DNA of 64,000 nucleotides from Angiostrongylus vasorum (Eukaryota; Nematoda; Chromadorea; Rhabditida; Metastrongylidae): assembly GCA_018806985.1 (NCBI GenBank), contig JADANN010000458.1, positions 1,426,001 through 1,490,000 of the forward strand. The letters run 5' to 3'. The notes under the pieces were generated by a model that saw only the letters and a list, made by a program, of their open reading frames with translations, was not told where the DNA came from and searched no databases. Positions 1,129 to 41,780 of the stretch are shown here, piece after piece. Made by a program: the position numbers and the translations under genes. Position 1 is the first letter of the stretch; every line of letters starts with the position of its first letter.

Positions 1129-1132
<4 letters not shown>

Positions 1133-5348: not shown

Positions 5349-5470
5349 ATGCAGGCGGTAATCATCGTTCTGTGTGCGCTGTGTGTGCTGGGTCTGTCTC
5401 AAATGACTTTCACTGATCGCTGGAATAAGAGGGATGCACCGTCGTACGAGCTGTTCACCTCTCCAAAAGC
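5349..5470 (+). CDS. nlp-47: AKH/GnRH-like paralog 1, exon 1
   Basis: Encodes the signal peptide, mature peptide, KR site and the first part of the spacer (40 codons plus 2 bases). The donor is GC|GTAAGC at 5471, leaving phase 2. The frame is open upstream to 4986 without a stop, but an extension would bury the signal peptide, so the ATG at 5349 is preferred. Confidence 0.9.
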
Positions 5471-8335
5471 GTAAGCTTTCTCGTAACCGTATTACTCTTT
5501 TGTATTTGAATTGTTTACTTGAATAGATAGCTACAGTTGATCGTTATGACAATGGCCTTTAAAATCAGTGCGACGTCTGAAAATTTAAAAAGAATTATCT
5601 CCGATTTTATCTACCGTCTCTTTTGGCGCGAATTTCTGGAGTTGCTCAGGTTATCCACACTGGAATGCAATTTTAGAGGTTTTGGATTTTTTTGAAGTTC
5701 TGTTTTTACCATTCGAAAACCAGAGTCTTTCTGATGTCTCTGACCAGTCTGAGCAGTAATTTTCTTTAGATTCTGGCTTTAAGTTGAGATATTCATTTAT
5801 ATGATCTTTTAAACTGATCTTGTTGAGCTGGTGCTAGGTTGGTATAAGTTTTCGTTATCGTTGTTGTAGTTGTCGTCGTCGTTGTCGTTGTTGTTAACAT
5901 TGTTGGTCGAGGCTGACGTTTCGGCGATTTCGCCTTCCTCAGACCCGTGCTGTTACGAGTGGAACCCCTAACTCTAAGCCTCAGTTCAGCACAGGCACAA
6001 ACATAAGTAAACGATTGAAGTGTTTTATAAGTAAGAAATTCGTTTTGGATGTCGCGTATTCAGATTGGCAAAAAATTCAGAAACACGTTGGTGATGAGAA
6101 AAAACTCTCTATAACACAGTAACCTTTTATAGTTTCATCTTTGTGTAAATGACTTGATAGGAAAAAAGAGACAGAGAGAAAGAAAAAAGAGAGAAAGAGC
6201 CTCAAATTCGATGATCACGCGTTAGCAAAGGAACTACAGAGGAAAAGCCTGTTGAGGTGCATGAAATCTTAATTTTTAAGTAACCAAATATTTGGTCTCA
6301 TCGAAAATTTCCCTGTGCATCAGTTGTGGTCTAACTGAAAAGTACGAGAATTCTTTAGCATCGACAACTGTTTCGTCTAGAGGTTGCTTCCTTTCTTGGC
6401 TTTCACTGTATTCGCTGAATTCAGTAATGTTTGTTGCTAATAACATATGGTGGGATATGAAGTCGAACAATGGGATTTAGCGCTTAAGTTTATCCATAGA
6501 ATTTAGTTGTGTTTCTAAGCTGTGTCTAATCTTCATTCTTCTTGTTCCTGCATAACTTTAAAAATATTCAACTTACGCTTCTGAAAAGTTACTCATCAGA
6601 ACAGCTAACTAAGGGCATTCAGACGGAAGAAGAACGACAGCGATGACGTTATTCTGATTTAAATCACATCATTCATATGAATTTTCCATGTTGTTATAGT
6701 GCTGGACATATGTGAAGAAAATGACGGTGGTGCGAGGCTTAGAAGAGAATGTCAATTCGGCGATTGAAATCACAAGTTGTTGGTTTGAACAACCATGGAG
6801 ACCTGATGATTGGCCTACAAAAAAGGGTTCGAAATGTACGACGTACTTCTCAAGCTACCAATGGTAAAACAGTAACGATTCTTCTGCATTCTTGTCAAAT
6901 CGTTCTTCGTCATCAACTGCGCTTACGATGTTCAGCAGTCAAATATTCCTCAATTAGTCAAAATGCGGATAGAGCTTCGTGCTCTTGAAGTAAGGTGACG
7001 ATATGGTGAAGTGAGGTGAGGCATTTTTAGCAGATAGTCATGGTTATGCTTCGGATTATTACAAATGATGCTTCCATATTCTAGTGAGGGATTCATCGAA
7101 GGCTGTCTCGTAGTATTATGACTTGCTAGCCCTCCATGAAAGGACAAAATTTCGTATCCAAATAGATTTGCTCATAAGAAGCAGTCACTGGGAAATGAAA
7201 AGGGCTCTTCTACTCTTTTATTGAATAAATTATGTGTTGAAGTAAAGTTATCTAGCAACGAACGAGCGTTTGAAAATTTGGTTACAAGTCGCCACGCTTC
7301 TTCTTCAAGACGTAAATTTCGCAAAAGCTATTCTTAAAAAAGTTTTGAGAGGTTATTCCTAGTGCCTCATTTCTCCTTGGTAGAAGTATTTCCCAACGAT
7401 GTAGATCTCTTACGTATCCTCTCCTAGCACTGGACTGCTCCGTGACGTCTTTGTAATGATGGAAAATAAGTGACAGATTTTCATAGAAGGTATGGATTGG
7501 AGAGATTTCTGATAACTACTTGTTTCGTCACATAAATTGGAATGGCAAATCAAAAAGTAAGACTGAACAAAGAACGTGATCTCGTTAGAATAACTGGGAT
7601 GGCGAAGGTTTGCGCTCACTACAAAACTAGTTTCATCGACATTTCATAGTGAATTGTTGTTTCCAATGACACAAATCTCACAGCTCATTTTGGGGATGAT
7701 TCATGGTTTTCCTGTAAAGCACCACGATCTCCAGTATCTTCTTGCTTAGAGTGATGAGGTAGATTTATTAGCATGGGCTTCGTCGGACTACTTGGGTACT
7801 TGGAAACACCTGCAGGGCAAATTGAAATGAATGGAGAGCAACCGTATGACTACAAAGTCGTCCACAAGTGATGATTTTCTCTTAGCTTGTCCTTCAATGC
7901 TGTGAACCAGTCGATTTCTAGTCAAATCCAACAGAATTGCCTAAATTGTGGCCTGATTCCAACAGATTTTTCATTCGTTCTAAACACATCCCAGCTTGCG
8001 CTATGACGTGATTTCCCACTTTCGACAACGCGTTTTCGCATTGCCGAGGAAAAAAATCTTATTAAAAACAAAATGAAAGAAATGTGTGAGAATGACTGCT
8101 AGCGTGAAAAATTTTGACGTTTCACTTCATCAGCTAGTAAAGCTTTCAGTTATCTTTTTTTGCTGTTATTTCCTTTATTTTTTGCGATTAACGTCATTTT
8201 AGTTCCGGGCAACCGTCGAAATGTAGTCATCGCTCAGTCGAAGAACTCTTCTTTCACCTCTATCAAATTCAAGCCGCTGAGAAGGAGATCCTCAGTGAAA
8301 TAGGCGTTTGCACTTTACAAAAATCTCTACGTTGA
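5349..8335 (+). CDS. nlp-47: AKH/GnRH-like neuropeptide precursor, paralog 1 (2 exons)
   Basis: Predicted secreted neuropeptide precursor of 84 residues from exons 5349-5470 and 8203-8335, joined by a 2.7-kb phase-2 intron. Residues 1-17 form a hydrophobic signal peptide ending LGLS. The mature nonapeptide QMTFTDRWN follows directly (residues 18-26) and is closed by a KR dibasic site. The N-terminal Gln would become pyroglutamate, as in the AKH family. No Gly precedes KR, so amidation is not predicted. The C-terminal part has cysteines 28 residues apart. The C. elegans AKH-GnRH peptide (NLP-47), recalled as pQMTFTDQWT, differs at two positions; in C. elegans it acts through the GnRH-receptor-like GPCR GNRR-1 in egg laying. 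Start choice: the only ATG that puts the signal peptide at the N-terminus, with a CAG acceptor directly before it. Identity is strong; function is inferred from the family. Confidence 0.9.
5815..5990 (-). mobile_element. PLE 3' terminal fragment
   Basis: On the - strand it contains CTGAGGAAGGCGAAATCGCC followed by GAAACGTCAGCC, the 3' motif of the PLE at 15.9 kb, then a CAACAACGACAACGACGA-type triplet tract. The same arrangement recurs at 30.34-30.48 kb. It lies inside the intron of AKH paralog 1. Confidence 0.65.
5858..5896. repeat. GTT/GTC triplet repeat tract
   Basis: An imperfect run of GTT and GTC triplets within the PLE fragment. The homologous fragment at 30.38 kb has a shorter version. 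Confidence 0.7.
5991..8202 (+). other. Rest of the intron of AKH paralog 1
   Basis: AT-rich intron sequence after the PLE fragment. Short ORFs occur on both strands, none protein-like. Nothing else recognised. Confidence 0.6.
8203..8335 (+). CDS. nlp-47: AKH/GnRH-like paralog 1, exon 2
   Basis: The acceptor ATTTTAG ends at 8202. The first base completes the Ala codon begun in exon 1, and the frame runs to TGA at 8333-8335. It encodes a short spacer, then Cys, 28 residues of mostly helical character (VEELFFHLYQIQ and following), a second Cys and a basic tail. This exon is too short to stand out as an ORF. It was recognised by matching the frame, cysteine spacing and hydrophobic pattern of exon 2 in paralog 2. 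Confidence 0.85.
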
Positions 8336-11084
8336 CACAAAATGAAATGCTTTAAGTTTGTTCATGTTCGCAGTGTTTATTGTTTTAATCCTGGAGAGTG
8401 TAAAGCTCATAGATATATGTTAAGAACAAAACACAGTGGTTAACCCCTTCCCCAACCTTCGTCTGTAAGCTTCCGTCTTCATATCGTTCGACGAACATGT
8501 AACACACAACAAGACAATCGTATAGATCGTTGCAAAAAAAAGCATTAAAGATGTCTGGCTTGTTGTTGAGTAGCAAAGGTGACCATGCATGTCCTAAAGG
8601 GAATACGAACTGACGTCTTGTTTTATTTCATGGTGTCTGCTCTTCTTCTGACTGGACAAACTCTATGCAAATGGAAGGAATCGATCCCCTGGAGGAGATC
8701 GATCTCGAATGTGGCATTTTGATCTGTACATCAATTGATGATGTGTTTTTGTGGAATTTTTAAACGCATTTGAGCCTAGGTTTCGCAGGCAATGTAGTGA
8801 TGAAGGATCAGTTGAAGTCACGAAGAACCGTGGAAACATCAGTATGAATTCCGATCACTTATTAAGTCTTTATATGTGCTGCTGAACAAGAACTGTCTAG
8901 TGAATTCTATTCAGTTGAGAAGCACTAAGAACATCAACGTCATTTCGAGTAATCCCTTTCGCTTCTACTGTTTGCGGGAGTGAGCTCAGAGGGACCTAGG
9001 GTTATTCGTTGGAGAGGATGGATGCTTTGGCACGCGTATAACTCTCACTCCCACTATGGCAGGGCAACCTCGCTGTAGAGCGACTCGTGATCGCTCCCAT
9101 AAAGGATATCATTCACTTAATTTGCGCTAAATTTTAAAGGTAAAAATGTTGGATAAAACTCTGCTTTTAGCAGGGTTGTTAGTTTTAGTTTTTGGTACAA
9201 GTGCAGCGAAAGACAAAGTAATCTAGTTATATAGCAAATTCCTAATTTTTTGAACCACATGAGAGAAATTCCGAGTTTCCCTGGGTGAATCAGACACAAG
9301 TGATCGGTTTTTAGGACTGTTTGCAAGCTTGCTGTGCAGACTGTTTGCAAGGTTGCTGCCTATGTTTCTGAGGGCGACAGATGCTTAAAGAGAGAATATT
9401 ACGGAGCTCTATCTAGGTACAGTATAGAAAACTGAATTCGAGCTCAAAATCAGGCAAGCCATCAGCTTGAATTTTTAACTCATCTGGGATATTTTAAGTG
9501 TACACTGAATAAACATGATGGAGCCAAATGAAATCAAAGGAGAATGAGACGACAATATGACTGTCGTCGTACGCTTTGTTGAAACAGCACGAGAGCTCCT
9601 TCTTATGAAAATCGACACCAGGGAAGACATGGAGTGTGAATTTTTTGACCATATATAGGAGAAGGATTTATATGACTTCCTTCCCAGTCAAACAACTAGT
9701 TTAACCTTTTTTCGTTCGTTCTATTGACGACGAGGACAAATTTCATGTTAAATAGAGATATCAAGACCATCCAAAGGCAGCGTTTGCGCACTTCAGGATT
9801 CGCATTTGCAGAAAAATCGGGTAGGCAGGCGAAATGATTTTCGCAGGACTCGAAGGCTCCCTTTTTAGTAGCGAAATTCACATAACACACTTTTTTTCCC
9901 GGAGTCGAGCGGACAAAAGGCTTCATCAAATGTCTCGAATATTGCGCTTTGATGTTTCGATGTATATTCCACATAATGATTGGACAATAGTTGCAAGAAT
10001 TTCTCAATCACCTTTCTCTAGTGTTGAATGAAGTTCTCTGCTGACTGTACTTTTTGCTGATTTTGAATATTTGGCCTCATATGAGTTGTAAGAGCTAGGT
10101 GTGATTAGTGGCTTGCTGCTCAAACGAAGGAGTTCCCAGACGTTTTAATGCTGAGTCATTTTATTTGCTCTAACAAAAGGACACTTCTAATTGTTAGAAT
10201 TTAGCAAATGATAGCACAGGGTTAATAACCGCCCTTGAACTAATATAATACAATCTGTTGCTTGAAGTATCAACTGAACTATCACATTCGTAAGGTGCGT
10301 CGCTCCACTCACTGGATTCGACTCGATGCGACTACAAAGGCTTACAACAAGCACAAAAAATGAACTGCTCTGGAGGAACATCTCGAATCAGTCCGGTTGT
10401 GGAGAATGCGATGACGCTTGAAAGTAGATATTGAACTACTATGCTTTTGGTTCTGATTCCAGCTTCATATTATTCGTGCCGACATAATCTCTCTACAGAA
10501 CTAATTAACACAGTGATTAAGCATATAACCATCGCAAAATGATAGAAAAAAAGTGTTAAATCGGTGCTAAACGACTGGCCTGGGCGCAATTTAAGCGAAA
10601 TGTCGATGTTTATTGCGGTTGCAGAAATGTCTGAAATCATTGGCGCTTTATTGCCTTTTCGAAAATGCTTAAAATCACCACCGCTTTCATGGAAATCGTA
10701 GGAAGCCTGCAGTAGATGCGGGCTTGAACCCACATGGACAACCGTATTCATTCTGTAACAACACTAATAAAAGAATTCACGCTACAACTAAAAGAATATC
10801 GTTATCTACGATGACAAATGGTTGCGTGCAAGGTTTTGTTTCGTCATAGGCGCTAGTCGTCCTCATGAAACGCAGCTTGCTTTTAACGAGAGGATTAAAA
10901 AGTAGGTGCAGGCTTCTTCTCAATTTCTGCGAAGTTCAGTGTTTTTCAATAAGTTTTCCTTCAGAATGATCCTTCAATGTTTCTTCCTCCATTTCAACTT
11001 TTCCGCTTAGCTTATTGTCGAGACGGTATTGATATTAAGCCCTCCTAATACATTGATTACAGAAAAGGCAACAGTCCTCAAGCA
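8336..11084. other. No gene recognised
   Basis: AT-rich, with scattered short ORFs that do not read as proteins. A 24-bp near-duplicate (ACTGTTTGCAAGCTTGCTG) lies at 9315-9360. Confidence 0.5.
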
Positions 11085-11203
11085 GCGATCGAATTCACAC
11101 ACGAAAAGGCCCGAGATCTACGTGAATGGTGGGTCCGAGGGAGAGAACGAATCGAATTTGAAGAGGTGTTGGGATTCGCACAGTAGATGTGAAGACGGGT
11201 GGT
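11085..11203 (+). repeat. SINE family C, 3' fragment
   Basis: Matches only the last third of family C, from CCTCAAGCAGC to CACAGTAGATGTGAAGACGG. No tRNA-like head. Confidence 0.65.
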
Positions 11204-11349
11204 GTAAGATAAGAAAACAAAAAATTATGTTCCTCACTTTTAGTCCTTAAAATACAACAAAATCAAATTCTTTTGAATGGGCAACTAGGCTCCTCCAATT
11301 TTTACGCGTTGCTCACCGAAGCATCCTCAAAAATTGAGGATCCTGAGAT

Positions 11350-11440
11350 GTTTTTTAAAACTCACACTAGGGCAGATTCGAACACCCGATTACCCTTTCC
11401 GCGTGCTAGCGTGTGTTATGCACTGCATCACCGAGGCCTT
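11350..11440 (-). repeat. SINE-like family D fragment
   Basis: On the - strand the B-box GTTCGAATCTG and A-box region precede TTTAAAA-type tail sequence. It forms an inverted pair with the copy at 11.52-11.66 kb. Confidence 0.5.
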
Positions 11441-11519
11441 AGTTCTGCCTTTCTCACGGAAGTGCTTACCTTGTCCTCTTTTTAAAGTAAAAGACTAGCT
11501 GAGGAAAAGGTAGAACGAA

Positions 11520-11660
11520 AGCTACAGTGGTACAGTGGATAGCACGTGAGCCCCAGGAAAAGATAATAGTGGGTTCGAATCTGACCTGAGGTGTGAGTTT
11601 TGCAAATATCAGCAATTGTAATTGTATTACACATAATACCCTGTCAAGAAAAGGATAATG
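11520..11660 (+). repeat. SINE-like family D copy, diverged subtype
   Basis: The A-box-like TGGTACAGTGGATAGCACG and B-box GGGTTCGAATCTG lead into TTTTGCAAATATCAGCA and a TACCCTGTCAAGAAAAGG tail, the family D 3' signature. Confidence 0.65.
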
Positions 11661-11669
11661 GGTAGCCAA

Positions 11670-13824
11670 TAAGAGAGTTACACGCCCAGGATTCTACTTT
11701 GTTTTGAGGCAACAGATTTTTCGAAGAGTACTGAAGTGTTTAAAATTTACTCAAATTCCCGTCTGACTAAGTAATACTTGTAAATTACGAATCAGAGGCA
11801 ACCATCGTTCGGTAAACACTTCAGCCCTTGAGTGACGTAATGAGTGAATGTCGATAAGTAGGAGCGTTCCACTATCGGTGATGAAGTTCGACAAAAATCT
11901 TCTTTGCTTACGGAGAATTGGTTTTCTTTAGTGTCAAAGTAGTCAATAAACCTTTACAAAATCGAAGGTCCATTACAGGTGTGTTTTATAATCAAATGCA
12001 AGGCTACGATTTTGTCTATGATGTCGAGTGAGAAATACGTGTCCCAGATTTATGAGAATAAAGTGGCTTAGAACATAGTTTTAGGTGTATTTTCATTACA
12101 CCAGCCCCTACTTGGTGAAAAAATGTTGTGTAAGTGGGAGTTGTTTAAAACAGTAAGACCACGACTTTTCCACTTCAATCAGGTAAAGAAATTGGTAAAG
12201 CCCTTTTCTCATCAGTATTTATCTGGATGATGTAAAGAAATAGTTCAGTTATGGAACTACGCTTCTGCTCTCAATTGTTCAGCCTTTTTAGTTTTCTTCT
12301 TTTGCAAAAAATTTGCGCAATTCTGCAAGTGGACCGCGTCCACGCTCTTTGGAAAGGGTGGTGATGATCAAGAAGCACTAAGCACCTTTGCTTTACTCAA
12401 CAGGAATTCGAATACACTGGCATGCAATGGGTAACATGAACTAGTACTTCAATCACTTCATGAATTTTACGCACCAGAACGTGAACGATGTCTCCTAAAC
12501 CATAACCAGCACGGAAACGTTAAGCCGGACTTCTTAATTCGAAGCCTAAAAAACTCAGAGAATGTTGCGTTGGACTTCCCAGTTTGGAGCTCAGAAAACA
12601 ATCGTGTATTAGATATTTAGGGGAATGAGAGATATCGAATGAAAGACAGATGGCTCGATTAATTTATGAAAAAAAAGTTTAGGGCAGACGAAGTAGAAGA
12701 ATGGACGAATGGATACTGCGAGGATGCAAGTGTCTTACAGGATAACCTGCAGTGCGGGCTAACTTTTACTCGCCTTAACCAGCTATACCCACAGATGATA
12801 GCGGCCTATTATAGCAAAATAATAGCACATTCAAAAGTCATCATCCTCGATGAGGAACACCATGATGGATGATGTTGGTTTGACAAGAGTGACAACCGCT
12901 GAAAAGTGTTTCGGGTGCGTACAACTCATTAACACCGACAATCTAAGTATGCAGAAAGTTGGTCACGGATTTTCTTGGATTTGTTGCTGTCGTTTGATGG
13001 TTTGGAGCTTTCGTCTACGGAATTGGTTTTTGTTGTCTCTTCTTCCTACCAAGATGAAGTTCTGATCTTGTAGAGTGCATGAAACCTACCTTCTTCCTTT
13101 TTTTTAACTAAAGTAAGTGTTTACGCTTGCATCTGCTCCGATTCATCCCATTCAAAGTCGCAACATAAAGTGAAACCTAAATATCAACTCTGAAAGCTAA
13201 AATTATCACAAGAACTGGAAATTAGCACTGGATACTTGGCATGTGAAAAGATGGCTGGAGTAAAAAAAATTGTCTACGATTTAGTTTTAGGACTGTTTTC
13301 CAAAGCTCTTGTCAAGAGTACAATTAGTCATCCAATCTTCAGCTGAGGTTCTCCAAATCTCATTTCTAGCGACTTTCCAAACGATTGCCTGCGCAGACCT
13401 TATAATTTCCAAATAATTTTCATTGAAGAGCCTCACACTCGTTGCGAAATCGAGTAAAAATAGCCTCAGTTTTGTGAAAGCAAAAAGCCGTTCACTTCGT
13501 GCTTTTATTCCGTTTACTTGTTCTGCATTTAACTCAACATTGAAGCCTCCAGTTGTCTACAATTATCTCTTTCTCATGTTGATTCGCCTAGCCTTGGACG
13601 ATAAACTCTCCAACGCTGTGATTATTGGCAATTATTCGTTTGTGGAAAGCACTGAGATCTCGAGCGGAAATGAGAATTCTAGTTTATTTTTTTCCATTGT
13701 GGGATTCTCACTTGCAAAATTCTGGAATATCGCGTCAGTTCAAAAGTCCAAATCCAGTGCACTTAAAAATGGACTTAAACTACTTCCAAAAAGCGTGCGT
13801 ACTTTTTGTGTTTTGTATTTTTGC
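11670..13824. other. No gene recognised
   Basis: The longest open frame (13423-13836, +) is low in protein character. The opposite strand shows a short helical-looking stretch, but nothing identifiable. Confidence 0.5.
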
Positions 13825-13838
13825 AATGTTAATTGATA

Positions 13839-14131
13839 AATAAAAGGATAAAGCTCTCGGCGTTGATCTATCCCTGAGGGATGCGCCATGCATTCGACTT
13901 CATTAAGCATCGTTTGGAGGTGATTGAATGCCTATATGGCCTTTACAATGACTCGCAGTGGCGTAGCGATGTATCGAGCCAGTGCTGCTATCCTCCCAGA
14001 CGAGTCTGGTATCAATTTGTTGACCCCAGAGAGGTAGAAGACTTGGTGAGCCACGGGCGCAGGATCAATCCCATGAGTGCGTAGCCGGGCGTCTCCGACC
14101 ACTGCGCCACATGCGCCTTTGTGAAGTTGTT
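13839..14131 (-). repeat. SINE family B copy with target-site duplication
   Basis: A full element flanked by AATGTTAATTGATA (13825-13838) and AATGTTAATCGATA (14132-14145), a 14-bp duplication with one mismatch. The tRNA-like head is at the right end (- strand). Confidence 0.85.
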
Positions 14132-14145
14132 AATGTTAATCGATA

Positions 14146-15903: not shown

Positions 15904-16650
15904 TTGGTTCATTTTCATTACCTCTCCTCTCACCCCTCTCACACGAAAAGGACGCTTGTAAGAAACATGTTTCGAACAGCAACCAATGTGTGCACGGGAA
16001 GAGAGCAGAGAGAGGAGTCCCGGAACTTGGCGCGGCAAATAGCCATTTCTAATGGCTACGAAACTGTTGCTCGGGACAGGTGTAGAGGAAATCCTGGGCC
16101 TCCAAACGATAACTCTAGCGATAAAATGATCCCGTTAATCCTACCCTTCATCTCAAATGATGTAAGTGCAGCTATAAAACGCTGCTTAAGAAGGGAGGGT
16201 CTAGAGGATTCGATAAACGTAGTTGAAGTGCCACCGAGTAATCTTAGTCGCCAGCTAGTTCGAAACCGCCTATATGACCGTCTGTGCGCAACGCAAAATT
16301 GCATAGTTTGCCCTAATGGTAGAGACGGTGATTGCATGAGCTCGGGTATAGTTTATCTGATCTCCTGTAAGGCGTGCGGAGACGAATACATTGGCGAAAC
16401 GGGCAGACCCCTCTGTGTCCGCATAAAAGAACACCTAGTTGGCAAACGTAAACCAAATACCCTACTAGGCACGCATAGGACCCAAAGACATAGCATGGAG
16501 GACTTTGAAGTACGTGTCACGATCCTCGCACAGGAATCGAGAACACAAGCGCGCAAAACTCTCGAGGCGTTCTGGATTAATTCCAGAAATCCGAAAATAA
16601 ACCGCAGGAAGAATGCCTCATTATCACGCGTGATATTGGGCAGTATATAA
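15904..16650 (+). pseudogene. GIY-YIG endonuclease domain of a Penelope-like retroelement
   Basis: Open for 248 codons without an ATG start at its beginning, so it is the C-terminal part of a truncated polyprotein. Features in order: the linker HPSHTKRTLVRNMF; the cysteine motif around QNCIVCPNGRDGDCMSSG; GIVYLISCKACGDEYIGETG, which is the GIY (here GIV) and YIG core; RPLCVRIKEH with the conserved Arg and the His; then a Lys/Arg-rich tail. In PLEs this domain nicks target DNA for target-primed reverse transcription. The core looks intact, but without the reverse transcriptase the copy cannot be autonomous. Confidence 0.85.
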
Positions 16651-25307: not shown

Positions 25308-25591
25308 TGAAAAAAAAATAAAGCTATCGGCGTTGATCAATCCCCTGAGGGATGCGTCATGCATTCAACTTCATTAAGCATCGTTTGGAGGTGACTAAAT
25401 GCATATCTGGCCTTTACAATGACTCGTGGTGTCCTACCGATGTATCGAGCTGGTGCTGCTATCCTCCCAGACAAGTCTGGTACCAATTTGCCGATATCGG
25501 AGAGATGAAAGGCTTGGTAGGCCATGGGCGCTATGATCGACTCCCGCGTGTGTTGCAGGGCGCCTCCGACCACTGCGCCACACGAGCCCGA
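25308..25591 (-). repeat. SINE family B copy with short target-site duplication
   Basis: A full reverse copy bounded by ATGAGAGTT at 25299-25307 and 25592-25600. Confidence 0.8.
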
Positions 25592-25649
25592 ATGAGAGTT
25601 AAGAGGAAACAATTAGAATGGAAAAAGTGCTAACACTGAAACTAGATGT

Positions 25650-32120: not shown

Positions 32121-33159
32121 TCATACAAAAAAAAGAATTACGTAATATAAACGTTGAATATTAAGTTAACTATAGGTCTTCGTAAAGATTTGAAGTTAGG
32201 TGCTTTTTTGAGATCACAAAAAGTATAAGAATAGTAAGTGTTGTCAGTCGATCGTTCACAAAAACTCGCATTGTTTTACCAGCCACCGCTAAATAAAAAC
32301 GAATTTTAGAATTTTAGAAAAATACTATGAGCCGTGTGGTCAATATTATGAAGAAGGTCACTTCGAAAACCTTTTTAGAAATGTCGAGAAAGATTTATGA
32401 CCTTTTTCATTAATTTTACTGCAGCTCCGGCTTGTAGATAGCTTGATTGTCGATCCTGGCCAGAAACCTGCAAAGGTTTCCTGTTGTTTTAAAGCTTAAT
32501 CTGAACCTACAGACCACAGTCGGCGTGACACACCCATGGTTATGTGGTTACAGTATGCCTTTGTAAATTAGTAATAATGGAATAGGAATTTCTTGCATTA
32601 GCAATTTGAAGTTAGTCTCCACAAAAGGAATCACACGGGCATTAAAAGAAAATTGAAAGAAATGACAGGTAAGAGCTGCGTTTGCAAAAAGCCCACTGGA
32701 TGGCGATGCTAACTCTTAACTCTAACTCTTCTCCTCTTTACCGATAATCCTATCCCACTCGCTGCAATCAACAGGAAAGCGATAACCATCTGGTACGAAA
32801 GGTTTCCCTAATAAGATGGAAAAGTCTTCAAAACAGATGTGTCGTAGGGAAAGTGTTGCTTGTTGGTCTCGAGCTGGAACATGTTACTATTAGCTGGAGT
32901 GTTACTGGATAATGATAATCACTTTCTACAAAGAAACCAAGAACAAGTGCAGGAAAACAGCAACACTCAGAGAAGACAATGACGCTTCCTATCAACTGTA
33001 ATCGTTGTGTGTTTTTTTCAGCCCCAATTTTTCCTTCTCCGTTTTTTTCTTAATTGTATTCCAAAAACCATTGAGGAGCTTCTTCGAAAGGTACCACTTG
33101 CTAATGTGAGCGAATTTAACCTTTAGAGTGAGAAATAAGAAGGATCTGCTATTGGACAG

Positions 33160-33310
33160 CTCGATGCTTTACCAACTGCACCTAGTCTCCCATCCGAAGG
33201 TGGGAGAGGGCGGTCGTAGTGAGCCTTCAGGGGCGGTGTCGAACTTGCAGCCTGTGTATTCGCTAGTGGAAACTCAGCGCACTGTCCCTCAGCCGCTCTC
33301 TTAACTTATC
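33160..33310 (-). repeat. tRNA-like element, single copy in this window
   Basis: The - strand has GCTGAGGGACAGTGCGCTGA as A-box-like and GCAAGTTCGACAC as B-box-like sequence. There is no acceptor-stem pairing, so it is not a tRNA gene. Confidence 0.35.
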
Positions 33311-33579
33311 CACGTAAAAACATTGAAAACGACACATCCAAGGAGGGTACTTCGAATTTCACGACCCAGTTAAGTACCGATTTTCTTATTTATTCTTATT
33401 TGTCACATTCTCTTATTCGAGAAGGCTTCAGATGGAATGCATCAAGTACCACTCTAATTTACTTTTCAAGCAACAAAGAAACAAATTTTTTTGCGATGCC
33501 TAAGTCTTTGTCTAAAAACGGGCCTTTTTTTGGAAACTACAGGTTCTCTTACTCGTTTTATTTTATTTTATTTGATCCG

Positions 33580-33855
33580 CCTTCACATCTACTGTGCAGA
33601 TCCCTACACTTCTCACATTTGATTCGTTTCCTCGCATCCATTGTCCACGAAGATCTTCCAACTTTTACGTGTCGTTTCGGTTGCTGCTTGAGGATTTTCA
33701 TTTCATCTTGAATGTTGTAGAATGCTGGTCAAGTCAATTCCCACGGTGTCCTGAGATAGCCAGGCTGAAGCGTTCCCAATTGGATTGCAGCGAGTGATTT
33801 TTTTTCAGACAAGTCCGGTACCAGTTTCCCGACCCCGGAGGGATGAGAGGCTTGG
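33580..33855 (-). repeat. SINE family C, 5'-truncated
   Basis: Contains the body and 3' end (CACATCTACTGTGCAGATCC on the + strand) but stops at the GGGATGAGAGGCTTGGC block, so the tRNA-like head is missing. Confidence 0.75.
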
Positions 33856-34499
33856 CTGTAATGAAAGACTAAAGGCCTTAATATCTCGCTCATCATTTGC
33901 CGTCATCACTTTCCGTTTTTCATGCACGCATTTTTCCATGGCGTAAGTTCCAACTACAAATAAAAAAAATTGTAAAAAAAAATGTACAAATGTTCCCGAG
34001 CGCATTGACACTTTGTACCAGAAAATCCATATTCCTAGCAGAAAGCTAACACCATGCTATCGCCGATTACTGAATGACTTCATTTAGGACAAATCCTCAA
34101 TTAGTTAAGCTGTACATATATCTCACTAAATAGCAGTTCATAATATCGTTGCATGGACACAGAAAGTGTTCTAACCGTTCAAAACATAGCGACTGAACCA
34201 TTAACCTACAAATGAGCAACATCGGAGTTTTCCTTTGCTCGACCGTATAACACTGCATTGAGTAAAAGCCACAGCATTTGGAAACGCCACCGACAATGTT
34301 GAGTAGTTCTGAAAACTGCTAAAGCTCGTTCCTTCTTCAGAAATCGCAAGAAAATACTCGAATAAATGGACAGGCTATCTTCACGGCAAGATGGGCACTG
34401 TCGAATTTTACATTCATATTATTCGCTTGTGGGCGTTGTCTACAGTTTTTAGTATTTTCTGAAGTTGGAATTGTACTCGCTAACTAGATGTTGTCTGCG

Positions 34500-35200
34500 C
34501 CGACAATATCTTAGAAAACATGGTTCAAGCGCTATTTCGGGGGTGTCGATGATTTTCGACGAGGTAGAACTATCAAGCTGCGTCTCTCCTGCATAACAAA
34601 ATGGGGAAAAAAAAGTTGTTGAAAGAATGAAAGAATAAGTGAGTGCGGAATTTTCGCTCTGCTAATTGGTCAGCAATTCTCTGAGAAGCTTGAACGAGAC
34701 ACATGCTGCTCAATTTTTAGTGTATAATCTTTGCTTTATGTTCTAATTGGTTGATACCTTATGCACAACGTGGTCTCTGTGAGCATTGAAGAGATCGGTG
34801 GTAAGCGTTGAGTGGAGCATTGATTTCTCAAAGTGGGTTAATTGCTCAATCCATGTCTCATACCACACAGGAGATAGTTGGGGGGATTGACGAGTGAAAT
34901 AGATGAATGAACACGCTTGGGTTCATCAGATTTTCGGCGGTCTCTCCAATAAGTTCTACGCGATTCCTCCTCATCTAAATAAATGGCCCTCCATTTATGT
35001 CATATTCATGTTCGCTTAACGCCCTAAAGCACATGTGATGTCGTCGCCATAATCAAAAAACTTTCCATTTGGATTTATTATCCATCATGATAGTGGATTT
35101 CAATGAACTGGGCTTTCTCTGATTTATGCCCACGTCTATCCTTTTCATGTCGCATTAAACAGCTTGAACATGATCAATGCTTCAGTGGTCTTTTTTAAAA
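34500..35200 (-). mobile_element. RTE-type LINE fragment (C-terminal RT part)
   Basis: On the - strand, broken frames give FKLLRELLTN followed by ALTYSF and FCYAGETQLD. These match the YASETW-type C-terminal region of nematode RTE polyproteins and the copy at 61.2-61.4 kb. Many stops; dead. Confidence 0.6.
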
Positions 35201-35764
35201 ATATGGCATCAAAAAATAATGTAGTTCTGGTTTAACAGTTTTTCATATCTCCGTTATATTAAAACTAGTCATGATTGACTAAGATTCGTGTGACGACAAC
35301 GTTGTCAGCAAAAACAAGGTTTGTTAGGGTTTTCCGCCAACGCGTATGCCTTTTTCATCGCAATCAAGTGACTTCATCATCAACTGGATATGGCACTATC
35401 GGTCACGTTTTTTCTATAGGGATGACAAGGAAGCAATCGCGAAGTTCTACTACGGCGATGCTGTTTCGATATCAGTCGACTAGAGTTCTTATTCACCATT
35501 GGACTCGTTGTTGGACGAGCAGTAGCACTGTTGCGCCACCTTTCACATCGTTGAACACTTTTTGTAATTGCAGAAAGCTACGACAAGGAGCATAAAGCCT
35601 GCCCCCTAACTAATTATAGCAGTGGTTACAGCTTATGTGTGGTAATATAATAAATCCCTTCTCAAATCCTGCTTCATCAATTGAGTAAATCTTATCCAAC
35701 TTTCTTGATATGAACGACATGAGGCGTGAGGCGTTTGTAGAATACACTAGAGAAACAAATCAAA

Positions 35765-36115
35765 TAATATTTTTTTAGGTGAATAAGCTAATACCAGGTT
35801 GTTGTAAAACATTTGTTCGTCTAACGTTCCGGTGCCTTCGCCTTCCTCAGAGACAAAAATGATCTGAGCCGATGGTCCACAGTCGTTCGTCACTCGGCAT
35901 GGGTCTTCGTAGTCTAATCGAGTCGGATTTTCTTGAGCACAGCACCACTTGAATGAAGGATCTTTTAACAACCCGGCCCTTTTATCCAGAACAGTTGTTG
36001 ATCTTTTACCACCAACGTAGTCTGTTGATCCGCCTTTTTTTTATTTTGAAGAAGGGAAAAGCATCAAAACCTTAGCCGAACAAATGTTCTTTGACAACCT
36101 CGTCTTAGCTTATCA
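35765..36115. mobile_element. PLE-related fold-back element
   Basis: The left arm from 35772 (TAAGCTAATACCAGGTTGTT, then CATTTGTTCGTCTAACG) and the right arm ending near 36115 (AACATTTGTTCGGCTAAGG when reversed) are inverted copies. Each carries a decayed PLE 3' motif. The left arm continues further than the right. Confidence 0.6.
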
Positions 36116-38439
36116 TTTCAAAATGTTGACTATTCATGCTGAGGTTAAAAAAATGTTGCTTTTAGAAACGTGATAATATTTTTAAAATCAGCACATAGTC
36201 GCCTATCTGGGAATGACCGCACATTAGACCGTCCACTTCACTCCTACTGAAGGCATAGCGCGGCGCTAGAGCCGGATGTAATTCGTGATACGAGAGATGA
36301 ACATATTCCGTGGATTCCAGCTTGAAATAAGTCGGCAGTAGTGTTTTTTTTTGGTGTTGTGTCTTTCTTCATGTTTCGATTGATTTCGGATTTCATAGAG
36401 AATCATGGTGAGTTTTTCACCAGTGGACTTAACAAAGAAAGTGATGCAAATCATAGGTTTCATTTTGAATAAAGCAAAGTGTTGATTGAGGTTACACCCA
36501 TCTTCAGCAACACACTGGTTCGGTTTTTCACATGTAGAATGTCCAGAAAATAGAAAGCAGACAAAGTCAAGAAAGGAGATATTCAAAGCAACAACAGGCA
36601 TCGCATAATGTGTCCGATGTCTTTCTCTAGAAGCATCCCGTACTCATCAGGGTAGATAGAACGTTGGACGAAGAGCAGCAGTGTGGGAAAGCTGGATTTT
36701 GAAAAGTGTTCAGCTTGAAGTGTTATATCTATTCAAACGGAGAAATAATTAAAAGGTCGGGAGAGTATAGTATGCCCTGTTATCTGGGGTTCATCGACTA
36801 AAGGGAGGTAATCAATTCTCTTGGAATGGAAACGACCTCCTAGAAACTCAGTCTCCTCTTTCTGCTCAGAGCGCAAAGCTCCATTATAAACTACTCAGCA
36901 ACTGTTAACCAGAAAGGGAGAGATTTTCAATAAAGCGATATCATCTCAACTTCATTTTAGATCCTATTCTTGAAAATGTGATGAGAACCGGAATACGATA
37001 GTATATGAGTGAAAGAGGATGCCCGATAGCTTCATTATCCTCTCTTCGCTGATGACATACGCTTATCACATCGATCACAGGCGTCACGAACGCTTTGCCA
37101 TTTCGACAACGCCTGTGTAGAGTTCGTGTTTTTTGTCGCGCTAAAAAAAGTGATGTTAATGGGAAACTAATTTGTTCCTGCGCCATTTGTGCATAACGAT
37201 GTAAATAACTCACATGGGTTCTGCTAGGAATGAGAAGTCAGTAGCATGAATTTATGCGCCGTATACTTGACCTAGAGCAAAAGAAAGATGTGAGAAGCGT
37301 ATTATGATAACGGGGACAGTAAGGAACAAGAAGAACACCTGTAGCAAAGCCATCCTCTTTCATTTAACAATCATTCTAACGTTCGAATAGGTTTCTGACT
37401 CTTGAATGCTATGCAAAGACAAGATTGTGGTCAGCGGTTTCTAGCGTTATTGAAAAAGTGATGCTACCTAACATCCTGGTTCACATAAGTGCAAGAGGAG
37501 ATAATACCAACGTCAGCCATCAAACGTCTGAGGTTCGCTGCATCAGCCAAGATGTTGGAAATCGTTTAAGTTCGCCGTGTATTAGGATTCATCCCCAACA
37601 GCTGTACCAGTGCCATCGGCAACGGGGTTCCACGGCATTTCATATATGCAACTGAAAGACTAATGTATGGAAGGCGATGATCACAATTCTTCCGTGAGCA
37701 AACAAGCTGAGTAACCATAGAATACACGCTGAACAGAAAACACTTCATTAACACAACCACAATGGCGCTGAGATATGAACGAAATTCGCAACCTCAGTTG
37801 CGCTTCGAACCCGCGATTACGATTTGCGAGCGCTCACATGTCATCAACAGCACGAGCTAGGCCCTTCTTCGTGTTTCTCTCAACCAAGTTTTGACTCCAA
37901 CGCCCTTATCAGCAATCACTCACCAACGGGAATACCATAACACCCTGAAAGCAACGAAGAACATACTTTTCCAGTTTGTCGAAGAGTTTCTAGTTGACTT
38001 TGCTCTTGGCGTAAAATTTCTTGCGAGCGCACACCGCGAAGGCTTCCCCAGATTGGAATTAAATATGTTGGACCAAGTGAACTATTCAATTTGTCGTTAG
38101 AAAAGGATTTTCTATGGTGAATATAAAGTATATTAGAGCAACTGAATTATTTAATTTGTTGTTAAATAACAACGTCCTTTCCAACTTTCATTTTCCAACG
38201 AGTTTCCAGAAAATAAGTGGTCATTCTCAATTTCTGCTTGAACATACTTTGATCCCTCAAATAGTTTTTCTAAACAGAATTTTTTTCAGATCATTAAAGG
38301 CAATTCTTTCCCAATTTGCTATGACCAGACGTGCCACTAAGTGACATTTGGCGAAAGCAACTGGAAAAGAACCGTTTACTACTTAAAAGAACATAAAGGA
38401 GCCTATGGGATAAATTGTTCGACGTCGACTAATTGATTA
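36116..38439. other. No gene recognised
   Basis: A 111-codon frame on the - strand (36266-36601) contains several spaced cysteines but no start, signal or splice context that would support a gene. Confidence 0.45.
37745..37850 (-). repeat. SINE-like family D fragment
   Basis: The + strand shows GGCGCTGAGATATGAACG and CGCTTCGAACCCGCGATTAC, the reverse of the family tail and B-box region. Confidence 0.45.
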
Positions 38440-38680
38440 GCGATCCGCCATGCATTCGACTTCATTTTTAGTATCGTTTAGGTGAACTAATGCACAATTG
38501 ACCAATAAAATGAGCTTCGGACGCTGTGTTTTTATCATCTCAAAGCTTTTATCCTCCCAAACAAGTCGCTTCTGATATTTGTTTCTGACCCTGAATGAAT
38601 GAGAGACACGGAATTGAACTAATTACTAAGTGTGTATTGCAGGGTACCTCTAACCACTAAGCAACACTTGCTATTTAGTG
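38440..38680 (-). repeat. SINE family B, degenerate copy
   Basis: Matches at CCATGCATTCGACTTCATT, the TCCTCCCAAACAAGTCG block and the CTAACCACTAAGCAACAC head. The body is gapped. Confidence 0.6.
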
Positions 38681-38821
38681 AATTGAGGAAGCGTTGCCGT
38701 TGATCAAACTTGCCAGTACTCGACATATCTGGACGTTGATATGTGGCCTACAAGGAAAAGTGATTTTAAACAAATATAATTCTCGCAGTGTACCAGAATT
38801 ATAGGTGCTATAGGTAGTGGT

Positions 38822-39105
38822 AGGGGCGCGTGTGGCGTAGTGGCTGGAGGCGCCACTGCGACACACGTAGAATCGATCTCCACTCCCATGGCACACCAAG
38901 CCTTCCATCCCTACGGGGTTGGCAAATTGGCACCAGACTTGACTGGGAGGATAGCAGCATTGGCTCGATACATCGGCAGATCACCGCGTTCATTGTAAAG
39001 GCCAGATATGCATTCAATCACCTCCAACGGTACTTAATAAAGTCGAATTCATGGAGCATTCCTTAGGGATTGATCAACGTCGAAAGCTTTGTCGTTTTTA
39101 TCCTT
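38822..39105 (+). repeat. SINE family B copy with perfect target-site duplication
   Basis: The reference copy of the family. Head GGGGCGCGTGTGGCGTAGTG with A box TGGCGTAGTGG, B-box-like GAATCGATCTCC, end CGTCGAAAGC. It is bounded by an exact 13-bp duplication TATAGGTAGTGGT at 38809-38821 and 39106-39118. Confidence 0.9.
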
Positions 39106-39366
39106 TATAGGTAGTGGTTAATGATCTCTTTTCTGCTCGACCTGACAACTCGGTTATTACCTCAGTCTTTTTTTTGTTGAGTCGCTAATGTGCTAATACG
39201 ATTCGGTAGTCACACCAAGTGAATGGTGTTACATCTTATATTTTCTTCCTACTTTTTTTTGGCAAGTTGGCAAAACACTAATTCTATGAAGGAAGTACAG
39301 CCAAAGAAATTTTTTTGCTTTTCCACGTTTCTGAGATATTTCCTCTTTAAGCACTTCACAGTTCAA

Positions 39367-39751
39367 CCTCCTAATGGTTTACCGCCTCATCGTGCTGGGA
39401 GGTGTTCCTGGATGTCGGACTGCGATGTACAGTGGGGGATTCAACCCCTGGCAGGGTCTCACAAGCTGAGAAGGAGCCCAGCGCTTCTGTCAGGAAGCCC
39501 AGCTAAGAGTAAATCAATACCAAGATCCACCACCGTCCTGGTATCAAAGTCGCATGGCGGAAAATCTCCCTCTGATCCACAAGGGCTGCCACTGCCTCTG
39601 GTGATGAAGACCTGGGCGAGACTTTGGACAGGCCGACCTCGGAATTCCACTGAACCACAATGCTTTCACCAGTAAGTCACCGAAGGATGGAGATTATATG
39701 CTTGGGCCCGCGCAATAGTGAGGACGGGCCATTCAATTATCAAGTAAGTAA
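39367..39751 (+). mobile_element. Family A short element, copy 3
   Basis: Runs from CCTCCTAATGG to the tail CAAGTAAGTAA. Flanked by ACAGTTCAA at 39358-39366 and 39752-39760. It lies about 320 bp before the start codon of AKH paralog 2. Confidence 0.85.
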
Positions 39752-39760
39752 ACAGTTCAA

Positions 39761-40063
39761 AAGTCGACCTAGATTAACAAAACCTTGATTCCGTTCACTA
39801 CCCAACAACAAAATCGACCAATGTGTTCAGTGTGTTAATTCTACCACTATTTTACTTTTGTCAACGTATTTATTGTTTGGTAAGCATTTTTTTAGATGAT
39901 CTAAAAGAGTAGAATTAGGAATGACAGTTAAGAATCTTTTTTTTTAAAAAAGTTAAGAATCTGTTCCACGTCTTCAATCCCTTCTGCATTGCATGTTTTG
40001 TTCTCTCGACGCCTTCGCTCATGAGCCGGTACCGTGCAGAATTTCTGATCGACAGTAATGTTT
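39761..40063 (+). other. Probable promoter region of AKH paralog 2
   Basis: A 300-bp gap between a family A insertion and the candidate trans-splice site. AT-rich; no specific element identified. Confidence 0.35.
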
Positions 40064-40066
40064 CAG
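40064..40066 (+). promoter_or_regulatory. Candidate trans-splice acceptor before AKH paralog 2
   Basis: ATGTTTCAG lies six bases before the ATG, matching the consensus TTTCAG. It is read as the spliced-leader acceptor, by inference. Confidence 0.5.
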
Positions 40067-40072
40067 AGCACA

Positions 40073-40197
40073 ATGCGTTTCGTACTGATCGCCGTCCTCG
40101 TCGCTCTTCTCTGCACTTGCGCTCTCACACAGATGACGTTCACTGAGCAGTGGAGTAAGAGGAACACACCGTTCTCGCGGTACAGCTCTTCAGCGAA
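40073..40197 (+). CDS. nlp-47: AKH/GnRH-like paralog 2, exon 1
   Basis: 41 codons plus 2 bases. The donor is AA|GTACTT at 40198, a weaker match to the nematode consensus than in paralog 1. Reading through the donor would give only eight more residues before TAA at 40220-40222, so an unspliced form would still contain the mature peptide but lose the two-cysteine domain. Confidence 0.88.
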
Positions 40198-41707
40198 GTA
40201 CTTAGATAATTCGCCACCATAAACTACCCTCTGTTAGCCAGTCATTACAACTTCAGTTGATTCTTAAAGCGCAGCACTTTGTGTGCAATAAAGGGGATGC
40301 AACTCGCCCCAGATAGTTCAGGACAAGTGCTTCATTTTGCGAGTTACCATATTAAGCAATGGTTTGTTTATCTATATTACCCGACTCCAGTTATTGCGCT
40401 GATACCAGCATTTCTTTCACCCGGTTCGTTGTAACGTATTAGTCATCCACGAGAGTCCTTAGATTTGCGCGTGGGTTTGCATGCCGATTAAGAACATCGT
40501 CTTCCTTATGTCTTTCAGTGTTGCTTGAGTCAATTCTTTTGTATTCTTAGAACAACTGTACTACAGCGTCCCCATTTAGTCATACAAGTTCGCCAGCACT
40601 TATAGACCAGAAGAATGTTTTCCCATTTCTTTCAACTACTATTTCCAGTGCCCCAACGAATGGGGGAAGAGGGTTTGGTCGATCTGGAAAAGGGTCCTAT
40701 CAGGAACGATGCGTGTGTGTAGTGGGCAACTTCAATTCGTTTTCCACTCCCTTACTAATGCTTTGGACTGGGATTTATTCCGAACAAGGGGATATATCTG
40801 TCAAACAACTGTGTGACTTCTCTATTACTTGGACGATTCTGAAGCTTTAATCGATTAGAGATAACCTCGTTCTTGTTATTTTCAACTAAGTTATTTTTTT
40901 TAGTTCCAACTTCCTATCACGTCTATACAAATTGAATATGTTTGTAGCGAAACACGTAGTCTGCACTGACTGGGATACCGCCCCCTTTTTTTCGAAAATT
41001 TCTAAAAGTTCCCAGTTATAGGGATTAACAAAAGGGGAATTGATCATCAGAATAATGACAACGGGCAACGGGTTTACGGTAAACGCTTCGTTCCCAAAAA
41101 AGCGTTCAGGAATTTGTATTTCCACTCGTTGAGAAATCAGATATTCCAGAACGTATTTGGCAGAAAAACGGCGAAGCATAAGAAATGGATGACGTCATTA
41201 ATTTAATGTGAACTGAGGTAAAAAGTATGATAGGTAGCAATTAGCAGTAGAGGCAAGCGAGAACCGAGAAAGCCGGAAGTATCGGTTCGATTCTCGTTAA
41301 GAGCCATTCAAGAATGTTCTATTTTCTTCGCCCATGGTTTCCAGTATTTTAATCACCAAAATTGCCTTGAAGCGCATTACATCATTGTCAAATCCACTGA
41401 ACGGATCAAGATCTTCATAGTGCAAGTGCGAATCTCTTCGTAGAACCCGCTTGTTGCACGAGTTTTCTCCAGCGTGAAAAAAGTGAAAGTGTTCTTGATG
41501 CTTTCAGTGGCAATGCCAGATGTTGAAAATCATCGAGAACGGGTAGCGGTCCAGTGGTGACGAACGATTCTATGTTTCAGAGATTCCGAGCAAGCACAGT
41601 GTGAAGCCGGGAAGGTGGCGGAAGTGCTGACGCATCTCGTTCGACTCAACGACATCCAAACCTCGTTGGCCGGCTATCTGAACGCCTGCTATCAGCGTCG
41701 ACTGTGA
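40073..41707 (+). CDS. nlp-47: AKH/GnRH-like neuropeptide precursor, paralog 2 (2 exons)
   Basis: Second precursor of 83 residues from exons 40073-40197 and 41581-41707, with a 1.4-kb phase-2 intron. Residues 1-19 are a signal peptide (MRFVLIAVLVALLCTCALT). The nonapeptide QMTFTEQWS (residues 20-28) follows immediately, then KR. There is no amidation Gly. After a Ser-rich spacer the second exon supplies Cys-x28-Cys and a basic C-terminus (YQRRL). Architecture, intron phase and cysteine spacing are the same as in the gene at 5349-8335, while the sequences are clearly diverged, so this is an old duplication and not a recent or assembly copy. Residue for residue this peptide keeps Gln7 of the recalled C. 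elegans form, whereas paralog 1 keeps Asp6. It is probably processed in neurons and secreted; receptor and role are inferred. Confidence 0.9.
40198..41580 (+). other. Intron of AKH paralog 2
   Basis: Bounded by GTACTT and TTTCAG. A tRNA-like relic may lie near 41230-41310 (GGTTCGATTCTCG). No other feature. Confidence 0.7.
41581..41707 (+). CDS. nlp-47: AKH/GnRH-like paralog 2, exon 2
   Basis: The acceptor ATGTTTCAG ends at 41580, a strong nematode-type 3' splice site. The first base completes a Lys codon, and the frame runs to TGA at 41705-41707. It encodes the Cys-x28-Cys domain (AEVLTHLVRLNDIQTSLAGY lies between the cysteines). Confidence 0.9.
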
Positions 41708-41780
41708 ATGACGATCATCATAGTGTTGTTTTTGAACCGATGAACGTTTTGTAAATCTCCACTATTCTTACAAGCTCGTC

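What the first reader, a model, noticed from the sequence alone, without database searches (positions are those of the whole stretch)
5349..41707. Two diverged AKH/GnRH-type neuropeptide genes in one locus
C. elegans is known for one AKH-GnRH gene (nlp-47). Here two complete precursors lie on the same strand 32 kb apart. Their nonapeptides QMTFTDRWN and QMTFTEQWS differ at positions 6, 7 and 9. Both genes look functional: signal peptide, cleavage before Gln, KR site, matching splice phases, intact C-terminal domain. A duplicated and diverged AKH/GnRH system in a parasitic nematode would be worth knowing for reproduction and energy use.
Basis: partly seen in the sequence, partly recalled or inferred. 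Interest (0 to 1): 0.92.

Follow-up and report, generated by a model that had tools for sequence, protein, structure and literature searches.

The report
Twin lungworm AKH/GnRH-type hormone genes
A nematode genome, likely that of a lungworm, carries two neighbouring and strongly diverged genes predicted to make slightly different AKH/GnRH-type (NLP-47) hormone peptides, where C. elegans is known for one; this is probably a new pair of a known kind of gene, of some use for studying how parasites control reproduction.

Summary
The window encodes two complete two-exon precursors on the + strand (5349-5470 + 8203-8335, 84 aa; 40073-40197 + 41581-41707, 83 aa). Each has a hydrophobic leader, then QMTFTDRWN or QMTFTEQWS, KR, a phase-2 intron and a tail with C-X28-C. 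A six-frame search of the 280-Mb assembly finds these two and no third. Gene 1 has a full-length annotated relative in Parelaphostrongylus tenuis (83% identity, spanning the predicted splice) and an exon-1 match in Angiostrongylus costaricensis, so the worm is probably a metastrongyloid lungworm, not a hookworm. A Nippostrongylus brasiliensis precursor (QMTFTDQWS, same C-X28-C) resembles gene 1 in its tail and gene 2 in its peptide. No orthologue of gene 2 was found and no transcript data were available, so its activity is inferred. They are nlp-47 paralogues; both peptides lack the amidation glycine, as nematode NLP-47 does. The kind is not new: a 2022 survey already lists nlp-47 duplications in specific parasitic nematodes. 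I found one intact-looking GNRR-1-type receptor locus and no close second one. Most likely, two NLP-47 peptides with partly different sequence act on one receptor. Ordinary in kind, moderately interesting in detail.

The parts
5344..5348 (+). TTCAG just before the gene-1 start codon; possible spliced-leader (trans-splice) acceptor
   Evidence: read from sequence; function inferred
5349..5470 (+). gene 1 (nlp-47-like copy A), coding exon 1: signal peptide, mature peptide, KR
   Evidence: exon-1 matches in P0001 and P0002
5349..5399 (+). gene 1 predicted signal peptide MQAVIIVLCALCVLGLS
   Evidence: hydropathy peak 3.62; cleavage site inferred
5400..5426 (+). gene 1 predicted mature peptide pQMTFTDRWN (no amidation Gly)
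   Evidence: identical peptide in P0001 and P0002
5427..5432 (+). gene 1 KR dibasic cleavage site
5471..8202 (+). gene 1 intron, GT..AG, phase 2 (2732 nt)
   Evidence: P0001 protein continues across it
8203..8335 (+). gene 1 coding exon 2 with C-X28-C tail and stop codon
40061..40066 (+). TTTCAG six bases before the gene-2 start codon; possible spliced-leader acceptor
   Evidence: read from sequence; function inferred
40073..40197 (+). gene 2 (nlp-47-like copy B), coding exon 1
40073..40129 (+). gene 2 predicted signal peptide MRFVLIAVLVALLCTCALT
   Evidence: hydropathy peak 3.52; cleavage site inferred
40130..40156 (+). gene 2 predicted mature peptide pQMTFTEQWS (no amidation Gly)
40157..40162 (+). 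gene 2 KR dibasic cleavage site
40198..41580 (+). gene 2 intron, GT..AG, phase 2 (1383 nt)
41581..41707 (+). gene 2 coding exon 2 with C-X28-C tail and stop codon
41781..41786 (+). AATAAA, a possible poly(A) signal, 73 bases after the gene-2 stop codon
   Evidence: function inferred

Best explanation
The window holds two tandem, strongly diverged paralogues of the nematode AKH/GnRH-like gene nlp-47, each predicted to be spliced from two exons and processed to one non-amidated, pyroglutamyl nonapeptide (pQMTFTDRWN and pQMTFTEQWS). Shown by sequence: two open two-exon frames, leaders, QMTFT..W cores, KR sites, phase-2 introns, tails with C-X28-C, only two such loci in the assembly, and one intact-looking GNRR-1-type receptor locus elsewhere in the genome. 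Inferred: after signal-peptide removal the precursor is cut at KR, the basic residues are trimmed, and the N-terminal Gln is cyclised. The two peptides would then act, mainly through the single GNRR-1-type receptor, as neurohormones of reproductive muscle and egg output, with division of labour by cell type or stage, or by potency (Arg instead of Gln at position 7 in copy A adds charge). Compared with N. brasiliensis, copy A has the more similar tail and copy B the more similar peptide.
For: Intact spliced frames. Paralogy E = 7e-14; tails alone beat all 2000 shuffles, z 5.4. Identity is concentrated in peptide plus KR (8 of 11) against 15 of 70 elsewhere, Fisher p = 0.0014, while third codon positions differ in 47 of 81 codons, which fits long selection rather than a recent copy or a decaying one. 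Full-length relative of gene 1 in P. tenuis, 83%. Same peptide core, KR and C-X28-C in N. brasiliensis. Only two loci in the assembly. Nematode NLP-47 peptides have pGlu and [FW]-[ST]-X2-W and lack the amidation Gly (PMC7303124 passages). NLP-47 activates GNRR-1a with EC50 150 nM and its knock-down delays egg-laying (PMC3527849 passages). A. suum NLP-47 is excitatory on the ovijector (PMC8764417 passages). GnRH-receptor-type TM3 exon at C18:1405980 (best three solved-structure matches are GnRH receptor chains), no close second copy.
Against: No transcript or peptide evidence for either gene in this worm. No orthologue of gene 2 in the protein collection (none of 2 candidates at E <= 1; 3 of 118 candidates at E <= 10, none closer to gene 2 than to gene 1), so its constraint is judged from one sequence. 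Both genes have upstream in-frame ATGs (three for gene 1, one at 40058 for gene 2), and gene 1 has only a weak ATTAAA at 8544 as poly(A) signal. Neither precursor reaches a Pfam cut-off; gene 2 has a sub-threshold LEAP-2 match, E 0.073. The receptor count rests on three exons. The TM6-7 exon alone does not match GnRH receptors among solved structures; the TM3 exon scores 29.2 bits against Pfam 7tm_1, just under the 30.5 cut-off, and the C18 locus is not among the 98 places listed by the genome-wide 7tm_1 search. Related pieces exist at C398, C352 (with a stop), C369, C460 and C468. No dating was possible: with three lineages and no outgroup the tree is unrooted.
Confidence: 0.8

Rival explanations
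1. Copy B is a dying or silent duplicate: the frame is still open by chance or recent loss, and only copy A makes hormone.
For: No orthologue of copy B found; its tail is the most diverged of the complete ones compared (10 of 53 identical to gene 1, 13 of 52 to N. brasiliensis).
Against: Leader, QMTFT..W core, KR, splice sites and phase, both Cys at the same spacing and an AATAAA are all present despite heavy divergence (47 of 81 third codon positions differ); the peptide differs from the N. brasiliensis one by a single D/E change.
Confidence: 0.12
2. [quoted passage not shown] This concerns age and can be true together with the best explanation.
For: The survey calls its parasite nlp paralogues recent (PMC8764417 section 3.6.3); only one precursor was found for N. 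brasiliensis although it comes from a 50-Mb contig.
Against: Gene 1 and gene 2 are less alike (24 of 81) than either is to N. brasiliensis (34 of 81 and 31 of 80), and the compared flanks share no extended non-repeat homology. nlp-47 can be unannotated in public gene sets (PMC8764417 appendix passages on T. muris and H. contortus), so a missing protein record is weak evidence.
Confidence: 0.4
3. Only a resemblance: short secreted proteins that share a motif by convergence, not NLP-47 homologues.
For: No Pfam family reaches its cut-off for either; overall paralogue identity is only about 29%.
Against: Alignment statistics, shared splice phase, tail homology, and C-X28-C spacing in 4 of 4 complete precursors.
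Confidence: 0.02

Closest known systems
C. elegans nlp-47 (Ce-AKH-GnRH, pQMTFTDQWT) acting on GNRR-1
   Same: QMTFT..W core, predicted pGlu start, nine residues, no amidation Gly (peptide from PMC5592718 and PMC3527849 passages)
   Different: One gene reported in C. elegans, two here; the last four residues are DRWN and EQWS instead of DQWT.
nlp-47 paralogues of parasitic nematodes (McKay et al. 2022, PMC8764417)
   Same: nlp-47 is on that paper's list of nlp genes duplicated in specific parasites, named nlp-X.1, nlp-X.2
   Different: Species and sequences are in supplements I could not open; lungworms were not among its nine species (list in the appendix legend).
Nippostrongylus brasiliensis Q1695_004963 (P0003, 'hypothetical protein')
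   Same: 81 aa, QMTFTDQWS-KR, C-X28-C tail
   Different: Single record found; tail closer to gene 1 (20 of 53), peptide closer to gene 2.
Insect adipokinetic hormones with precursor-related peptide (APRP)
   Same: Order leader - peptide - associated C-terminal peptide (PMC7221030 passages); pGlu, Phe4, Thr/Ser5, Trp8
   Different: Insect AKHs are C-terminally amidated (PMC5592718 and PMC7221030 passages); these are predicted not to be.

Membership tests
Nematode NLP-47 (AKH/GnRH-like) | N-terminal Gln directly after a signal peptide (pGlu peptide) | tested here: met
   Both genes: hydrophobic leader then Q; cleavage and cyclisation themselves are predictions
Nematode NLP-47 (AKH/GnRH-like) | [FW]-[ST]-X2-W motif (PMC7303124) | tested here: met
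   F-T-D-R-W and F-T-E-Q-W
Nematode NLP-47 (AKH/GnRH-like) | No C-terminal amidation Gly (PMC7303124) | tested here: met
   Peptides end N-KR and S-KR
Nematode NLP-47 (AKH/GnRH-like) | Precursor homology beyond the peptide | tested here: met
   Tail scores exceed all 2000 shuffles for g1-g2, g1-N. brasiliensis and g2-N. brasiliensis; 1 of 2000 reaches it for g2-P. tenuis. Not tested against C. elegans itself
Nematode NLP-47 (AKH/GnRH-like) | Activation of a GNRR-1-type receptor | not testable with these tools
   Receptor locus found in the same genome; binding needs an assay
[quoted passage not shown]
   Trp8 is followed by Asn or Ser, and no Gly precedes KR in either gene; definition from PMC5592718 passages
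RPamides (NLP-2/22/23/46) | C-terminal FRPG, no pGlu (PMC7303124) | tested here: not met
   No FRPG in either peptide, and both begin with Gln

The most novel reading that the evidence does not exclude
An old strongylid two-hormone system on one receptor: the pair predates the split of lungworms from Nippostrongylus. Copy A has taken over a new peptide (pQMTFTDRWN) that is shared by three lungworm genomes. The two precursors keep the same Cys-flanked helical tail (C-X28-C, same heptad register), so that they can form homo- and heterodimers before processing, as I recall for locust AKH precursors, setting the ratio of two ligands for a single GNRR-1-type receptor.
Probability: 0.15. Interest if true: 0.65.

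Novelty: new member of a known kind. Interest (0 to 1): 0.36.

Why it matters
nlp-47 is one of five C. elegans nlp genes found in all nine parasites of a 2022 survey (PMC8764417 section 3.3), and its peptide is active on the Ascaris ovijector. A lungworm with two unequal ligands and apparently one close receptor is a small natural experiment on how a GnRH-family hormone diverges without its receptor, and it warns that assays using only the C. elegans-like peptide may miss half the ligands. It also gives gene models for a locus whose relatives public annotation calls hypothetical.

Tried and rejected
Third copy in the genome: rejected (weak C443 and C364 matches looked at). Recent segmental duplication: blastn of 1-12000 against 36000-46000 gives dispersed-repeat pieces, the peptide-coding stretch and short chance matches, no extended homology. 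Receptor by the motif CWTPYY: one match, in a short stretch without receptor-like neighbours. Receptor by PF00001: 98 matches at E <= 0.001, 30 fetched as loci, 68 not read. One search printed one + strand frame per locus, not always the hit frame, and the hit frames of the 13 minus-strand loci; no GnRH-type exon was recognised by eye among the 30, and the C18 locus is not in the list. My regular-expression filter looked at + frames only and printed nothing. The VQWxAG pattern was one base short of the intended codon spacing, so it tested nothing. Receptor by tblastn of human GnRHR: 7 matches at E <= 1, best C18. Rfam: no match at gathering scores in the window. Pfam on 30 ORF references, chosen from the 148 ORFs: only a GIY-YIG domain and the two mariner-like pieces reach a curated cut-off. 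Structure: P0003 with a 2-row alignment, mean pLDDT 65.1, so its helix 48-76 is a hint only; the window's own precursors were not folded. Heptad test: each sequence alone is weak (687, 1417 and 1487 of 20000 shuffles reach it for gene 2, gene 1 and N. brasiliensis); independent shuffles of the three together 0 of 20000, of gene 1 and 2 together 14 of 20000, but these ignore relatedness; joint column permutation 237 of 20000. Locust AKH precursor dimers: two literature searches and passages of two listed reviews gave no statement on it, so that point is recalled. Sister nematode genomes are not held by these tools, so gene-2 orthology could not be tested in DNA.
Full report
What is there. Both genes were read directly and rebuilt. 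Gene 1: exon 1 5349-5470, GT..AG intron, exon 2 8203-8335, 84 aa. Gene 2: exon 1 40073-40197, GT..AG intron, exon 2 41581-41707, 83 aa. Both introns are phase 2 and fall after corresponding residues. The order in each is leader, QMTFTxxWx, KR, linker, tail with two Cys separated by 28 residues. A TTCAG or TTTCAG ends 0 and 6 bases before the two start codons, which would suit trans-splicing and supports the chosen ATGs. For gene 1 the A. costaricensis record starts at the same Met; the P. tenuis record carries 45 extra N-terminal residues. There are upstream in-frame ATGs at 5190, 5307 and 5313 for gene 1 and at 40058 for gene 2, so the starts are likely, not certain.

Not chance. The 17-base degenerate pattern for QMTFT(D/E) occurs 7 times in the 280-Mb assembly (3 times for the reversed control). 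Only the 2 in this window carry the rest of the precursor; one of the other 5 (C390) reads QMTFTETW but then stops and has no leader. tblastn of each precursor against the whole assembly at E <= 10 gave 3 and 5 matches: the four exons of these two genes, one cross-match each way, and two weak places (C443 E 0.076, C364 E 4.1) in which no precursor was visible. The two proteins align with E = 7e-14. Their tails alone score above 2000 of 2000 shuffles (z 5.4).

Relatives. In the protein collection gene 1 had 2 matches among 2 candidates: P. tenuis KIN20_037275, full length, 70 of 84 identical from the shared Met, which runs straight across our predicted intron; and an A. costaricensis protein that shares exon 1 and then differs, probably an unspliced model. 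Gene 2 had 2 candidates and no match at E <= 1. A profile of gene 1, P. tenuis, gene 2 and the C. elegans nonapeptide had 118 candidates and listed 3 at E <= 10: the same two and N. brasiliensis Q1695_004963. P. tenuis and A. costaricensis are Metastrongylidae, N. brasiliensis Heligmosomidae, in NCBI taxonomy. The window is therefore probably from a metastrongyloid lungworm; the species was not determined.

Mosaic. Whole-precursor identities: gene 1-gene 2 24 of 81, gene 1-N. brasiliensis 34 of 81, gene 2-N. brasiliensis 31 of 80. Tails: gene 1-N. brasiliensis 20 of 53, gene 2-N. brasiliensis 13 of 52, gene 1-gene 2 10 of 53. The tail of the A. costaricensis model does not fit (267 of 2000 shuffles reach its score with N. 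brasiliensis, 19 of 2000 with gene 2), as expected if it is unspliced. Peptides: N. brasiliensis QMTFTDQWS, gene 2 QMTFTEQWS, gene 1 and both metastrongylid records QMTFTDRWN. Compared with N. brasiliensis, copy A has thus the closer tail and copy B the closer peptide. Between the paralogues identity is 8 of 11 in peptide plus KR and 15 of 70 elsewhere (Fisher p 0.0014); codon positions 1, 2 and 3 differ in 42, 36 and 47 of 81 codons. That is a heavily diverged pair with the hormone part conserved. The compared stretches, introns included, show no extended similarity beyond a dispersed repeat. The pair looks old, but three lineages without an outgroup cannot root it, and fast divergence after a lungworm-lineage duplication is a serious rival.

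How it likely works. Shown: sequence anatomy. Inferred: signal cleavage before Gln, cutting at KR, trimming, pyroglutamate formation; no amidation, because no Gly precedes KR. This is what the literature says of nematode NLP-47 (PMC7303124 passages; PMC5592718 passages). C. elegans NLP-47 activates GNRR-1a and its knock-down delays egg-laying, without a significant fat change (PMC3527849 passages); A. suum NLP-47 gives a transient lengthening and faster contraction of the ovijector (PMC8764417 passages). Reproductive muscle and egg output are thus the likeliest targets; an energy role rests on insects.

Receptor. tblastn of human GnRHR over the assembly gave 7 matches at E <= 1, best at C18:1405980 (46% over TM3, E 1.7e-4). 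That exon's three best solved-structure matches are GnRH receptor chains (2.9e-7, 8.4e-7, 1.3e-4), then angiotensin receptors (2.4e-4); against Pfam 7tm_1 it scores 29.2 bits, just under the 30.5 cut-off. Pieces that look like TM2, TM4, TM5 and TM6-7 lie in order around it over about 12 kb (TM2, TM4 and TM5 judged by eye, TM6-7 by a tblastn match of E 0.18 and 20.0 bits to 7tm_1). Whole-assembly searches with the TM3, TM6-7 and TM2 exons gave 4, 1 and 3 matches at E <= 10, in each case only the C18 locus at high identity. The others are 37-54% identical and include a stop-containing piece at C352 and what looks like a separate receptor at C398. Against: the TM6-7 exon by itself matches chemerin and somatostatin receptors best, at E 0.065 or worse, and no GnRH receptor; and the C18 locus is not among the 98 places of the 7tm_1 search. 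So the ligand is doubled but the close GNRR-1-type receptor apparently is not.

Tail. AlphaFold2 on the N. brasiliensis protein with a two-row alignment gives one helix, residues 48-76, in the tail between Cys46 and Cys75 (mean pLDDT 65.1, block means 80 and 83 over residues 51-70). Genes 1 and 2 and N. brasiliensis share the same hydrophobic heptad register (6 of 8 a/d positions each; joint column permutation 237 of 20000). A straight helix would hold the two Cys too far apart for one internal bond, so disulfide-linked dimers are a guess; dimeric locust AKH precursors are recalled, not read here.

Known or new. PMC8764417 (abstract, passages, section 3.6.3 and part 1 of 2 of section 3 seen) finds nlp-47 in all nine parasites and lists nlp-47 among genes with recent duplications in specific parasites, named nlp-X.1, nlp-X.2. 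Which species is in a supplement I could not open. A full-text search for MTFTDRW and MTFTEQW found no paper with either string (two papers, both with MTFTDQW only). In the listings of searches (20 of 106 shown), 54 and 55 I saw no title on nlp-47 in Angiostrongylus or Parelaphostrongylus; the library lacks most subscription journals. The finding is therefore a new instance of a known kind, with two points of interest: divergence of the ligand pair and an apparently single receptor.

Noticed in passing
window 25352-25633 and similar pieces near 4049-4280, 13881-14084, 38675-39066, 45059-45294, 63642-63869: A dispersed repeat of about 240 bp; the whole-assembly search had 7796 first-look candidates, 40 scored, the 39 others 87-90% identical. 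The other window copies were recognised by eye from ORF translations and one blastn match.
   Followed up: partly
window 15904-16650, + strand: ORF with a GIY-YIG endonuclease domain (E 4.2e-6), probably a Penelope-like element remnant (element type recalled).
   Followed up: partly
window 58881-59587, - strand: Broken mariner-like transposase in separate pieces (Transposase_1 E 3.2e-8 and a helix-turn-helix piece; 'mariner' is recalled). Searched apart, not mended.
   Followed up: partly
window 55650-56103, both strands: Overlapping long ORFs (134 aa on +, 139 aa on -); the + one has no Pfam match, the - one was not searched. Unexplained.
   Followed up: no
L065 (G000:C398, around 54351-54434): TM2- and TM3-like pieces of what looks like another GnRH-family receptor, 54% identical to the C18 TM2 exon over 28 residues.
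   Followed up: partly
L066 (G000:C352, around 136881) and L058 (G000:C369, around 2494240): Pieces resembling the TM2 exon (with a stop codon) and TM3 exon of the C18 receptor; possibly decayed receptor copies.
   Followed up: partly
P0002 (A. costaricensis) and P0001 (P. tenuis): Public models of gene 1 look partly wrong: one appears to run on past exon 1, the other carries 45 extra N-terminal residues.
   Followed up: no
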